Notes under the pieces: model-generated | Databases searched by the model: none | The model's input: only the letters and a program-made list of their open reading frames with translations | Told to the model about the DNA's origin: nothing | Shown: in pieces, positions 49,019 through 53,687 of the stretch | Numbering within the stretch: position 1 is the stretch's first letter | Layout: every line of letters starts with the position of its first letter | Assembly: GCF_001202025.1 (NCBI RefSeq) | Contig: NZ_LGHS01000046.1 | Span: forward strand, 186,001 to 250,000 | Length of the DNA: 64,000 nucleotides | Source: Pseudorhodobacter aquimaris | Lineage (GTDB): Bacteria; Pseudomonadota; Alphaproteobacteria; Rhodobacterales; Rhodobacteraceae | Reading direction: 5' to 3' | Translations under genes and position numbers: made by a program

Positions 49019-49216
49019 ATGACAGACAAGATCAAAGACCAAGGTGCCCAGCCACAAGCAGTGCCCTATGCCGTTGACGGGACTGACGGGCTGTCGGTCC
49101 TCTTTAATGAAATGCGGGCGCTGATGTCGGTGTTTCCGGGCGCGGGTTTCAACCCCGGTGCGCCGGTTTCAACCGATGAAGAAACCGAGGCGATGTTCGA
49201 TAACATGCCGGTTTAA
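49019..49216 (+). CDS. Conserved small hypothetical protein
   Basis: A 65-residue acidic protein with a GGAGAAG ribosome site. It has no membrane segment, cysteine or motif that I recognise; the C-terminal part is acidic (TDEETEAMFDNMPV). It follows the DksA-type gene at 27 bases and is probably co-transcribed with it. No function can be assigned. Confidence 0.6.
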   Translation: MTDKIKDQGAQPQAVPYAVDGTDGLSVLFNEMRALMSVFPGAGFNPGAPVSTDEETEAMFDNMPV

Positions 49217-49353: not shown

Positions 49354-51195
49354 ATGCAAAGCGATACCCCCTCTCTTGTCACCTTGGAACAGCGTGGCGC
49401 GGTTCTGGTCCTCTGGATCGACAATCCGCCTGTGAATGCGCTGGGGGCCGGGGTACGTGCGGGGCTCGCAGATGGTCTTGCGAATGCCGCTGACAATCCC
49501 GAAATCCACGCTGTCGCGCTTTTGGCGCGGGGGCGCATGTTTTCTGCCGGGGCGGAGATTTCAGAGTTTGGCAGGCCCTCTGATGCCCCGCTCTTGACCG
49601 ATTTGTGCAACCGGATAGAGAGCAGCCCCAAGCCGGTTGTGGCCGGAATTCATGGCCGCGCCCTTGGTGGCGGGTTGGAGCTGGCGCTTGCGGCCCATGC
49701 CCGCGTGGCACTTGCCGATGCGCAGATTGGCCTGCCCGAGGTCAAGCTTGGCATCCTGCCCGGCGCTGGCGGCACCCAGCGATTGCCGCGCCTGATTGAG
49801 CCGGATCAGGCATTGTCGATGATGATCTCGGGGAGTCCGGTTGCCGCGCCAGAGGCGCTGGCGATGGGGCTGCTGGACAAGGTGGTTGAAAAGGATCTGG
49901 AGGCGGCGACCATCACCTATGCATTGCATATGGCGGGGAATGGCCCTGTGGTTCCGACCCGCGACCGCCGTGACGGATTCCGCGATGGTAAACGCTTCTT
50001 TGCTGCGATTGCTGCGGCGCGCAGGACGCAAGAAACCGCTCCGCTGCCGGGCCCGGGGCGGATCATTGATTGTGTCGAGGCGGCGAACCTGTTGCCCTTT
50101 GAGCAAGGGCTTGCGTTTGAGCGCGCTGCTTTCAGCGAACTTGTCGCGACCCCAGAATCCCAAGCGCTGCGTCATACGTTTTTTGCGGAACGCCGTGCCG
50201 CGCATATGGAGGGGGCGCGGGCCAAGCCGCAGACTCTGGGGCATATTGCGGTCTTGGGCAGCAGGAATGATGCGGTTGCCTTGATAATGGAGCTGCTCTT
50301 TGCGGGGTATGATGTGACCATGGTTGATCACGATACGCAAAGCCTGTCCGAGGGGCTGGAGGCGGTGGCCCTGATCCTGGCCGCCGAAGTCAAGGCAGGC
50401 CAGATGGCGCAGGCCGAGCATGACGCGCAATGGGCGCGGCTCTATCCTGCCTTGTCGGGCAGCGATGACGGCGAGGCCGCGGATATGCTGTTTCTGACCG
50501 GCCCCTATCGGGCGCGGGGGGCAGAGGTGCCTGCCGTCCCGATCAAGGGTGGCGCGCCGATTGTGACCTTGGGGCATTTGGGGGCGGGCGGCGCGCAGGC
50601 CCTTGGATTGATCTTGATGCCTGCAAGCCGTAACGGGCATCTGGCCGAAATGCTGATCGCGCCCAACACCCAGCCAGAGGCGATTGCCACGCTGCTGCAT
50701 CTGCTCCGCAAATTGGGGCGGCCTGTGGTGCAAGGGCAAAACAGCGGCGTGAACGCAGGGCTGGTATTGGCGCTTCAGTCCAGCCTCAAGACGCTGGAGG
50801 CCCAGCACGGCCCCGAACCCGTGCGGGATTTGCTGGGCCGTTGGGGTATGATGCGCGACAACAAGGGCCATTTGCCGCCGCCTCTGGGGCCCATCAACCT
50901 GTGGTCGGGTCTGGCTGCGCCGGTGATGGGGGCGCTTGCCAATGCGGGGCTTCGTATGATCGGAGAGGGCACGGCGTTGCGCCCGTCGGATATCGATCTG
51001 GCGTTTATTCTTGGACATGGATTTCCGCGCTGGGGCGGTGGCCCGATGCTCTGGGCGGGGCGTCGCGGACTTATGGTGCTGCGCGATGATCTAAATCATT
51101 GGGCCGGTGATGCCCCAGATATCTGGTCGCCCGCGCCCCTGCTCGATGATCTGATCCGGCAAGGCATTTCGCTTGGAGATCTGAATGATGCGTGA
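49354..51195 (+). CDS. Enoyl-CoA hydratase fused to a degenerate 3-hydroxyacyl-CoA dehydrogenase half
   Basis: The 613-residue protein has the layout of a bifunctional beta-oxidation alpha subunit. The crotonase domain (about 8-190) is intact: the AGAEISEF oxyanion loop, E109 in GGGLELAL and E129 before [14 protein letters not shown]. The second half (about 295-600) looks like 3-hydroxyacyl-CoA dehydrogenase but has lost key residues. The Rossmann GxGxxG is replaced by [11 protein letters not shown] (300-310) and the HFFxPA catalytic histidine motif by LILMPA (419-424). It therefore probably keeps hydratase but not dehydrogenase activity. The C-terminal [15 protein letters not shown] segment is kept, so the fold is likely intact. 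Confidence 0.82.
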
Positions 51196-51204
51196 CACGC
51201 ATCC

Positions 51205-51420
51205 TTAGCCGAGGAAAATTCCCATAACGACCAGCATTAACCCAAGGGCAGAAATCCCCAAGGCGACCATATTATAAATGACTACCTTTTGTAGCGATTT
51301 GCGCACCACATCCTCTGGTTCGTCAGAGTTGCGCGCCCGCAGGGCAAGAACAACGCACCAGCCAAGCCCTGCCACCCCGACCAAAGAGACCAGCGCCCCG
51401 ATCCAAACCAAAACTTCCAT
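51205..51420 (-). CDS. Small two-helix membrane protein
   Basis: A 71-residue protein with two hydrophobic helices (about 3-26 and 48-70) separated by a charged loop (RARNSDEPEDVVRKSLQK). The ATG at 51420 is used; a purine-rich AAGGATAAGGG lies upstream. An inner membrane hairpin location is inferred. I do not recognise the family. It is convergent with the hydratase gene. Confidence 0.55.
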   Translation of the reverse strand: MEVLVWIGALVSLVGVAGLGWCVVLALRARNSDEPEDVVRKSLQKVVIYNMVALGISALGLMLVVMGIFLG

Positions 51421-51613
51421 GACTGTGCCCTTATCCTTAATCCCGCATTTTCGCCTAACCGAGGATGCTACATCTGACAAGGGCGCAAGCATTTATTGGC
51501 GCATGAAACTTTGGCGGCGTTGCAGGGCAATTTATGCCTGACAGCAAAGCTTTGCTTGAACAGCCCCCCTGTGGCAGGCTAGGGAAGGGTCTATCACATT
51601 CCATGAGGCAAAG

Positions 51614-52321: not shown

Positions 52322-53300
52322 ATGGAACAGACATAAAAGCAGAAGACCCCAAAGCCGTATTCACCTGAGATTTGTCAGTGCGCGGTGCGGTTGGCGATGA
52401 AACACCGTGATGATTGGCAGTCTGAGGCCGCAGCGCTGACAGCTGTTGCATGTAGATTTGGTTGTGCGCCGGACAGTCTTCGCACTTGGGTCCGCCAGAT
52501 CCAGTTTGATGGCGGCGTCCGCCCCGGACCCGCGAGTCAGAAGAAGGCGCGCATCAAGGAGTTGGAGCGTGAGAACCGCGAACTGCGTCAAGCCAATGAG
52601 GTTTTGCGCAAGGCCTTGGCGTATTCTGAACGGCGTGCCATTGTGCGCGACCCGAAGCGGGAATCGTCCCGGGCCAGGTCGGACTCCGCCTTGAGCGTCA
52701 AGATCGATGCAGCTTGGGAAGCCAACCGCAAGCTCTATCGCGCGCGGAAGATTTGGCACGTTCTGCGGTGGGAGGGTCAAGATGTCGCCCCCTGTCACGG
52801 TTTGCATGGCAAACCATTGCCGGGCAACGGCTGCACCGTTGAGCGTTTGATGCGCAACTTAGGTATCAGGGGGGGTAGCGGCAAAGAGGTCAAAACGACC
52901 AACCCGGACAGGTCTGTGCCATGCCCTGACGATAAGGTGAATCGCCTGTTCAGGGCGGATCGGCCAGATTAGCTTTGGGTTCCCGACTTTACCTATGTGC
53001 AGACATGGTCAGGGACGGTCTACGTCGCGTTCATGATTGGTGTTTTTGCAAGACGGATCGTAGGTTGGCGCATCTCGATATCCACGAAGACCCAATTTGT
53101 TCTTGATGCGCTTGAGTATGCAATATGGCAAAGAAAAACGCCTGATAACAGGGATTTGGCTCACCACTTGGGCCGCCCCTCTCACTGTTTCCAAGAAAAC
53201 CGTTGCCCGCTGCTTTCTTGGCCCCATCGGGTACATCACCCCCGCAGAAGCACGGGAAGCATTTTATGTCAATCTGAACACACTCGATATTGGCGTCTAA
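52322..53300 (+). pseudogene. Decayed IS3-family transposase
   Basis: Fragments of both IS3 reading frames remain. OrfA starts at ATG 52322 but has TAA as codon 5 (52334-52336), then continues KPYSPEICQCAV, a helix-turn-helix region and a leucine-zipper-like ARIKELERENRELRQANEV. OrfB parts follow: KLYRARKIWHVLRWEG, CTVERLMRNLGIRGG, a TAG at 52970-52972 in the usual Q-L-W-V-D-F-T position, WVPDFTYVQTWSGTVYVAF, and, after an internal deletion, YITPAEAREAFYVNL ending at 53300. Catalytic D-D-E residues are not all present, so the element cannot move by itself. Confidence 0.85.
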
Positions 53301-53687
53301 TCGTTGAACAAATCATCCCTCCGGTAAACAAGGCGCGGTTCACGAGGATCCGGGGCATCTGTTTGTTGGACGACCGGTCGGCGGCAAGGCTGCCTGCTGT
53401 GGCGCCATCTGAATTACACAGCGCCGCAGAAGCCGCACTGTGGAATGCCACTCGGTCAGTGTCGTTCGGTGCAAGGCAGTGGTCGTCAGGTCACGGAGAT
53501 CTGACTTCGCGCCTCAATTCTGAACGGCTTTATCGCTCTGGCCATACCCTAAATTCGTTCGCGTTAAGGGGCAACGCAACCTTGGCCCTCTTTGTGGACA
53601 AACAGCACCCGAGTGGGCCAGAACACAATCAGTGTCAGAATGTCATGATATTGAACTAAGTGGTTTGGTTGGAATATTTTCTGACAC
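53301..53687. other. Gene-free stretch between IS remnant and nos promoter
   Basis: No frame here has a ribosome site or recognisable protein similarity. The 3' half becomes AT-richer towards the FNR-type box. It may hold further IS debris, but I cannot identify it. Confidence 0.4.

What the first reader, a model, noticed from the sequence alone, without database searches (positions are those of the whole stretch)
49354..51195. Beta-oxidation fusion with a dehydrogenase half that has lost its catalytic motifs
The hydratase half keeps both catalytic glutamates (E109, E129). The dehydrogenase half keeps the fold-level landmarks at its C-terminus but has no GxGxxG ([11 protein letters not shown] instead) and no HFFxPA histidine (LILMPA instead). 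The frame is open for 613 codons without decay, so the half is under selection for something other than NAD-dependent oxidation: acyl-CoA binding, channeling, oligomerisation or regulation.
Basis: partly seen in the sequence, partly recalled or inferred. Interest (0 to 1): 0.65.

Follow-up and report, generated by a model that had tools for sequence, protein, structure and literature searches.

The report
Hydratase keeping a dead dehydrogenase half
A bacterium carries a two-part fat-breaking enzyme whose second part has lost its chemistry, and relatives show the same loss at the same gene, sometimes with the dead domain cut out, leaving the pieces that probably hold the first enzyme in shape.

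Summary
The 613-aa frame at 49354-51195 is an MFE1/FadB-type protein. Its hydratase half keeps both Glu. Its dehydrogenase half lacks GxGxxG and the catalytic Ser, His and Asn, keeps the Glu, and also lacks about 80 residues, mostly the second half of domain D.

Orthologues occur in 9 of 9 genomes of the genus (own included). In Rhodobacteraceae one conserved chromosomal address holds intact enzymes, full-length dead ones, shortened ones like this, and four 447-453-aa proteins without the NAD domain. A single dead clade is rejected (AU p = 0.0022).

Best kept are the crotonase domain, linker helix 10 and domain E, including the E-helix-10 salt-bridge pair. In rat MFE1, deleting domain C reportedly leaves full hydratase activity, whereas constructs without D/E lose it. 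Best explanation: a monofunctional hydratase (or hydratase/isomerase) whose old dehydrogenase half is kept mainly as an intramolecular brace for helix 10, while the NAD domain is eroded. A separate intact FadJ-like gene presumably supplies the dehydrogenase.

New variant of a known kind; function inferred, not assayed.

The parts
49354..51195 (+). whole gene, 613 aa, eroded MFE1/FadB-type protein
   Evidence: Pfam; AF2 model mean pLDDT 86.9, pTM 0.86; VIA-align Z 37.4, rmsd 3.5, 574 aligned to rat MFE1 6z5o
49354..50118 (+). domain A (crotonase), residues 1-255; boundary approximate
   Evidence: ECH_1 13-198, E 1.8e-35; keeps 36 of 37 columns invariant in intact relatives
49678..49680 (+). E109, first catalytic Glu (Glu103 of rat MFE1)
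   Evidence: invariant column
49738..49740 (+). E129, second catalytic Glu (Glu123 of rat MFE1)
   Evidence: invariant column
50119..50229 (+). domain B, linker helix 10 region, residues 256-292, with F276, E279, R280 (rat F271, E274, K275)
   Evidence: dN/dS 0.04 for 251-292 in the closest pair; 4 of 4 intact-invariant columns kept; helix 267-282; rat numbering mapped by me
50230..50727 (+). degenerate domain C (former NAD-binding domain), residues 293-458; boundary approximate
   Evidence: keeps 8 of 30 intact-invariant columns; residues 291-370 predicted at block pLDDT 86-95, 371-430 only at 43-75
50251..50283 (+). remnant of the dinucleotide loop, [11 protein letters not shown], residues 300-310
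50608..50625 (+). LILMPA at the place of HFFxPA, residues 419-424 (I420 at the His column)
50728..50853 (+). stub of domain D (first half), residues 459-500; boundary approximate
   Evidence: 2 of 13 intact-invariant columns kept; helices 466-485 and 487-496 predicted
50854..50910 (+). linker replacing the second half of domain D, residues 501-519
   Evidence: 82 residues in L060 against 19 here; 0 of 4 intact-invariant columns of the second half kept; block pLDDT 55 at 501-510
50911..51192 (+). domain E, residues 520-613, with R559 (rat R657)
   Evidence: 9 of 11 intact-invariant columns kept; dN/dS 0.03 over 76 codons in the closest pair; block pLDDT 88-97 from residue 521

Best explanation
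The gene encodes a former bifunctional MFE1-type enzyme that now works only as a 2-enoyl-CoA hydratase (possibly also isomerase) through domain A with E109 and E129. Helix 10, which covers the hydratase active site and in this architecture belongs to the dehydrogenase part, is held in place by domain E and a stub of domain D; that is why the C-terminal part is kept. The NAD domain (C) and the second half of D are not needed for this and have been degraded, here by loss of catalytic residues plus a deletion, in four relatives by absence of C altogether. Shown: sequence state, conservation pattern, purifying selection, conserved address, rejection of a single dead clade, predicted fold. Inferred: hydratase activity, absence of dehydrogenase activity, the bracing role, and the direction intact to dead.
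For: Columns invariant (95% or more) in 125 intact relatives are kept in 40 dead C-bearing proteins at 0.83 (A), 0.90 (B), 0.34 (C), 0.41 (D first half), 0.38 (D second half), 0.76 (E); the window keeps 36/37, 4/4, 8/30, 2/13, 0/4, 9/11. In family pairs with domain A identity 0.42-0.60, mean identity of dead pairs (551) is A 0.47, B 0.43, C 0.27, D 0.23, E 0.39; of intact pairs (1547) A 0.48, B 0.49, C 0.55, D 0.54, E 0.51; of 55 intact same-address pairs A 0.53, C 0.52, D 0.65, E 0.54. The helix-10/domain-E salt-bridge pair (E279, R559) is kept in 36 of 40 dead and 4 of 4 C-less proteins. Four proteins of 447-453 aa lack domain C; the one compared with 6ium (L143) aligns to 4-291 and 605-694. 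All 42 dead family copies read with flanks have at least one of seven marker genes within 5 kb, 41 at least two. dN/dS is lowest in B and E in the closest pair. PMC5715344 states that a domain-C deletion mutant of rat MFE1 keeps full hydratase activity while constructs without D/E lose it. The own genome has an intact 733-aa FadJ-like protein beside a thiolase and an acyl-CoA dehydrogenase.
Against: No activity was measured. 10 of 44 dead proteins have changed the second hydratase Glu (7 Asp, 3 Ala) and 3 of 44 the first, so not all of the set can be ordinary hydratases. Residues 293-500 are as constrained as domain A in the closest pair, more than a merely dispensable domain needs. One dehydrogenase residue, the Glu at 432, is kept in 38 of 40 dead proteins, which bracing does not obviously explain. 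Domain E also drops in dead pairs (0.39 against 0.51), and in the most distant pair (L001-L017) its dN/dS (0.22) is not below domain A (0.19). Intact enzymes keep the E/R pair in only 72 of 125, so it is not universal. The D-stub piece of L143 against 6ium (485-523) is not significant by itself, so what is left of D is uncertain. Kiema 2002 itself could not be read.
Confidence: 0.62

Rival explanations
1. The former NAD domain has become a ligand-sensing allosteric domain: it still binds the adenosine part of NAD(H) or another nucleotide and, by moving relative to D/E, opens or closes the hydratase.
For: 7 of 8 congeners keep GxGxx[GA] plus the acidic residue at the end of strand 2, with Asp in 8 of 8 where intact enzymes have the nicotinamide-contacting Met; dN/dS 0.14 for 293-400 in the closest pair; the first part of domain C (291-370) is predicted with confidence. 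PMC5715344 proposes allosteric coupling between the HAD part and domain A in rat MFE1 (passage).
Against: The window protein itself is the one of 8 without the motif (R304). Only 17 of 40 dead proteins keep the half-motif, the second part of domain C is predicted poorly (43-75), and four relatives lack domain C.
Confidence: 0.12
2. The protein is a relic under weak constraint on its way to loss; nothing in the second half matters.
For: Domain C and D identity is low in dead pairs (0.27 and 0.23); lengths and deletions differ between lineages; dN/dS of 401-500 reaches 0.80 (0.50-1.27) in the most distant pair, L001-L017.
Against: Match in 9 of 9 genus genomes; dN/dS 0.03-0.14 for A, B, 293-500 and E in the closest pair, 0.26 for the short linker; domain E and helix 10 well kept.
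Confidence: 0.12
3. The whole protein is now a pseudoenzyme: an acyl-CoA-binding or partner-binding scaffold without hydratase turnover.
For: Second hydratase Glu changed in 10 of 44 dead relatives and first in 3 of 44; the flanking frames scanned are not beta-oxidation genes.
Against: The window protein and the seven classified congeners keep both Glu; the window keeps 36 of 37 invariant domain A columns.
Confidence: 0.1
4. A rearranged but working NAD-dependent dehydrogenase.
For: Part of the domain C fold is still predicted; the catalytic Glu is kept.
Against: Ser, His and Asn replaced and second half of D missing (the Ser column lies in a gappy stretch); an intact FadJ-like gene exists.
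Confidence: 0.03

Closest known systems
[quoted passage not shown] 6z5o, 5omo, 2x58)
   Same: Same overall fold (VIA-align Z 37.4, rmsd 3.5, 574 aligned); both hydratase Glu; equivalents of F271, E274 and R657, and Arg for K275 (mapped by me)
   Different: No GxGxxG; Ser, His and Asn of the dehydrogenase replaced; second half of domain D missing
Ralstonia eutropha H16 protein 6ium/6iun
   Same: Best sequence match in the PDB (phmmer E 7.4e-80) and first Foldseek row; Z 37.0, tied with rat MFE1
   Different: About 700 aa against 613; 28% or 32% identity
Domain-C deletion construct of rat MFE1 (Kiema 2002, known here only through passages of PMC5715344)
   Same: Hydratase part plus D/E without a working NAD domain; four relatives at this locus lack domain C naturally
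   Different: An engineered construct with measured activity; in the window protein domain C is degraded, not deleted, and D is about half
FadB/FadJ alpha subunit of bacterial fatty acid oxidation complexes
   Same: Same domain order; the NCBIfam FadJ model PRK11154.1 is the top hit
   Different: 211.7 bits against a cut-off of 869; no thiolase among the six flanking frames scanned

Membership tests
MFE1 / FadB-FadJ bifunctional hydratase-dehydrogenase | N-terminal crotonase domain with two catalytic Glu | tested here: met
   E109, E129; ECH_1
MFE1 / FadB-FadJ bifunctional hydratase-dehydrogenase | linker helix 10 joining crotonase to the HAD part | tested here: met
   4 of 4 invariant columns; helix 267-282 in the model
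MFE1 / FadB-FadJ bifunctional hydratase-dehydrogenase | GxGxxG NAD-binding motif | tested here: not met
   G-S-R-N-D-A at 302-307
MFE1 / FadB-FadJ bifunctional hydratase-dehydrogenase | dehydrogenase residues Ser, His, Glu, Asn | tested here: not met
   P, I, E, A in the aligned columns; only the Glu is kept
MFE1 / FadB-FadJ bifunctional hydratase-dehydrogenase | complete D and E (3HCDH) domains | tested here: not met
   no PF00725 at E <= 1; second half of D reduced to 19 residues; E kept, 9 of 11 columns
MFE1 / FadB-FadJ bifunctional hydratase-dehydrogenase | NAD-dependent 3-hydroxyacyl-CoA dehydrogenase activity | not testable with these tools
   needs enzyme assay
Fatty acid oxidation complex alpha subunit (FadB) | encoded beside a FadA-type thiolase | tested here: not met
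   six flanking frames scanned with Pfam: DksA-like, BLH_phosphatase, metallo-beta-lactamase, GapR and two without a match; a thiolase lies beside the separate FadJ-like gene
Monofunctional crotonase-type enoyl-CoA hydratase | stand-alone crotonase chain without a HAD part | tested here: not met
   domain E and remnants of C and D follow
Monofunctional crotonase-type enoyl-CoA hydratase | hydratase activity | not testable with these tools
   needs enzyme assay

The most novel reading that the evidence does not exclude
At one chromosomal address in Rhodobacteraceae the dehydrogenase half of a bifunctional enzyme has been lost repeatedly, and in some lineages, this genus among them, the dead NAD domain has been re-used as a nucleotide-responsive switch on the hydratase, while a sister lineage removed it. 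A six-protein dead lineage (L149, L157, L164, L169, L174, L176) with a shared new signature and a better conserved domain C would be another case of re-use.
Probability: 0.12. Interest if true: 0.75.

Novelty: new variant of a known kind. Interest (0 to 1): 0.52.

Why it matters
It is a natural domain-dissection series of a textbook bifunctional enzyme. One locus holds intact, full-length dead, shortened and domain-C-less versions, which parallels the engineered deletions reported for rat MFE1 and makes the question of why the two halves depend on each other directly testable. It also warns against annotating such genes as 3-hydroxyacyl-CoA dehydrogenases. Five searches of the held open-access library (listings only) showed no paper describing this; most subscription papers are not held, so it may be described elsewhere.

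Tried and rejected
Sequencing error or recent decay: rejected, 9 of 9 genus genomes have a match and dN/dS is low in the closest pair. One old loss: holding all 43 dead family proteins together is rejected (AU p = 0.0022), with the caveat that I had seen the tree and that long branches are present. Minimum changes between intact and dead are 7 on the 105-row tree, 6 forced by well-supported branches, one of the dead rows (L063) being from outside the family, and 5 on the 63-row tree, 2 forced; if a dead half is never regained the count is 11, 9-12 in 200 bootstrap trees. The clearest single case is intact L038 beside dead L042 (100/95), both at the shared address. Many inner forks are weak, so the number of losses is open. 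Gene conversion restoring an intact half: for 12 intact same-address copies I compared nearest neighbours of both halves. It is inconclusive: the nearest C-E half is always an intact protein, as expected when dead ones are degraded; the nearest A-B half is a dead protein for L038 and L182, and the C-E half of L037 is nearest to L033, which has no marker within 5 kb. So conversion is not excluded. C-less forms outside the family: 2 of 240 class genomes match at E <= 1e-60, the own genome and one 787-aa frame; the strict threshold does not exclude divergent ones. Literature: searches listed 0 papers, one search listed 3 and one, none on this subject by title and abstract start. Rows dropped: 17 second copies or wide stretches, 21 names of fragments, single-domain hydratases or doubtful relatives (two of them had given no protein; L018 and L024 look dead by eye but are partial), and anything under 430 aa. 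The list was cut, and I fetched the higher-scoring listed matches, so counts describe those, not the whole family. Intact proteins read with flanks were chosen by score, 23 in all. Domain boundaries and start codons of relatives were chosen by rule and are approximate; gene labels YedE, KatG and NosR are recalled.

Full report
What is there. The frame 49354-51195 encodes 613 aa. Pfam gives ECH_1 (13-198), a weak fragment of 3HCDH_N (309-366) and no 3HCDH at E <= 1. The best PDB matches by sequence and fold are 6ium from Ralstonia eutropha and MFE1-type enzymes. The AlphaFold2 model, built on 48 sequences, has mean pLDDT 86.9 and pTM 0.86; residues 291-370 are confident (block means 86-95), 371-430 are not (43-75), and 501-510 is weak (55). 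In addition the protein is about 80 residues shorter than intact L060, mainly because the second half of domain D is reduced to a 19-residue linker.

Where it comes from. The window lies in a genome whose congeners correspond to named Pseudorhodobacter records (the genus is inferred from matching loci). 9 of 9 genus genomes have a match. In the family search 189 of 248 genomes have some match at E <= 1e-40; many of those I classified are intact paralogues. I classified 169 proteins of at least 430 aa by six dehydrogenase positions (three Gly, His, Glu, Asn; the Ser column is shown but was not used): 125 have all six and are called intact, 44 do not, of which 4 have no domain C. Of the 40 others that still have domain C, 4 have His and 38 have the Glu.

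One address, many states. With seven neighbouring genes as markers, 42 of 42 dead family proteins read with flanks have a marker within 5 kb, 41 of them at least two (16 full-length dead, 22 shortened, 4 without domain C); one dead family protein, L011, was not read with flanks. Of 23 intact proteins read with flanks 12 have a marker, 9 have none on stretches over 13 kb, and 2 lie on short contigs. The intact ones were chosen by score, not at random. So all four states occur at the same locus. The dead state is not one clade (AU p = 0.0022), though gene conversion back to an intact half is not excluded.

What is kept. In dead proteins the columns that hardly vary in intact ones are kept at 0.83 in A, 0.90 in B, 0.34 in C, 0.41 and 0.38 in the two halves of D and 0.76 in E. 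The salt bridge described for rat MFE1 between helix 10 and the support loop of domain E (Glu274, Arg657; passage) maps to E279 and R559; the pair is kept in 36 of 40 dead and 4 of 4 C-less proteins, and in 72 of 125 intact ones. Among the eight genus proteins mean identity is 0.69 (A), 0.75 (B), 0.55 (C), 0.49 (D), 0.77 (E). Nei-Gojobori dN/dS for the closest pair is 0.14, 0.04, 0.14, 0.14, 0.26 and 0.03 for A, B, 293-400, 401-500, the linker and E. In the eight more distant pairs dS is mostly above 1; in 6 of the 7 that include domain A the middle region is above A, in L013-L015 it is not; E lies at or below A except in L001-L017.

How it most likely works. PMC5715344 (passages read) reports from Kiema 2002 that rat MFE1 without domain C has full hydratase activity and that constructs without D/E lose it, helix 10 being part of the crotonase site but held by D/E. 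PMC10988713 (passages read) describes the same domain roles and says the helix interacts tightly with domain E. The natural proteins keep best the parts that these experiments call necessary, although of D only a poorly conserved stub remains. I conclude that the window protein is most likely a hydratase braced by the remains of its dehydrogenase half. Substrate and pathway are unknown; the flanking frames scanned (DksA-like, BLH_phosphatase, metallo-beta-lactamase, GapR, two without a match) give no hint. Beta-oxidation is presumably served by the intact FadJ-like protein next to a thiolase and an acyl-CoA dehydrogenase. Frames of 731-826 aa with PF00725, presumably its counterparts, are in all 9 genus genomes; only the own one was read in full.

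What does not fit. The Glu at 432 is kept in 38 of 40 dead proteins though its His partner is mostly gone. The NAD half-motif is kept in 7 of 8 congeners but not in the window protein. In 10 of 44 dead proteins the second hydratase Glu has changed, in 3 to Ala, and in 3 of 44 the first. A six-protein dead lineage has domain C identity 0.46-0.68 at domain A identity 0.56-0.74, less eroded than elsewhere, with a shared KNR signature. These leave room for a re-used domain C, kept as the novel case.

Noticed in passing
L149, L157, L164, L169, L174, L176: Six full-length dead proteins on a long branch (100/100) share replacements at the Ser-His-Glu-Asn columns (ERET in 5 of 6) and a KNR signature in 6 of 6; their domain C is less eroded than in other dead proteins, which suggests a new role.
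   Followed up: partly
window 50647-50649 (residue E432): The Glu of the His-Glu dyad is kept in 38 of 40 dead proteins while His is present in only 4; reason unknown.
   Followed up: partly
L139, L140, L141: Shortened relatives in which the second hydratase Glu is Ala, so they are probably not ordinary hydratases.
   Followed up: no
window 49019-49213 (+): 65-aa frame between the DksA-like gene and the hydratase gene; found beside the orthologue in 5 other genus loci (43-73% identity) and 3 other family loci, with no Pfam match.
   Followed up: partly
window 51205-51492 (-): 95-aa frame found as neighbour of the hydratase gene in many family loci, no Pfam match.
   Followed up: partly
window 52385-53659 (+): Frames that by eye resemble broken IS3-type transposase pieces, downstream of the GapR gene and before a NosR-like gene (names recalled, not tested).
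   Followed up: no
L050 / L015: In this draft genome the frame starts near query residue 57 although the match covers 1-613, which suggests a frameshift in the assembly.
   Followed up: no
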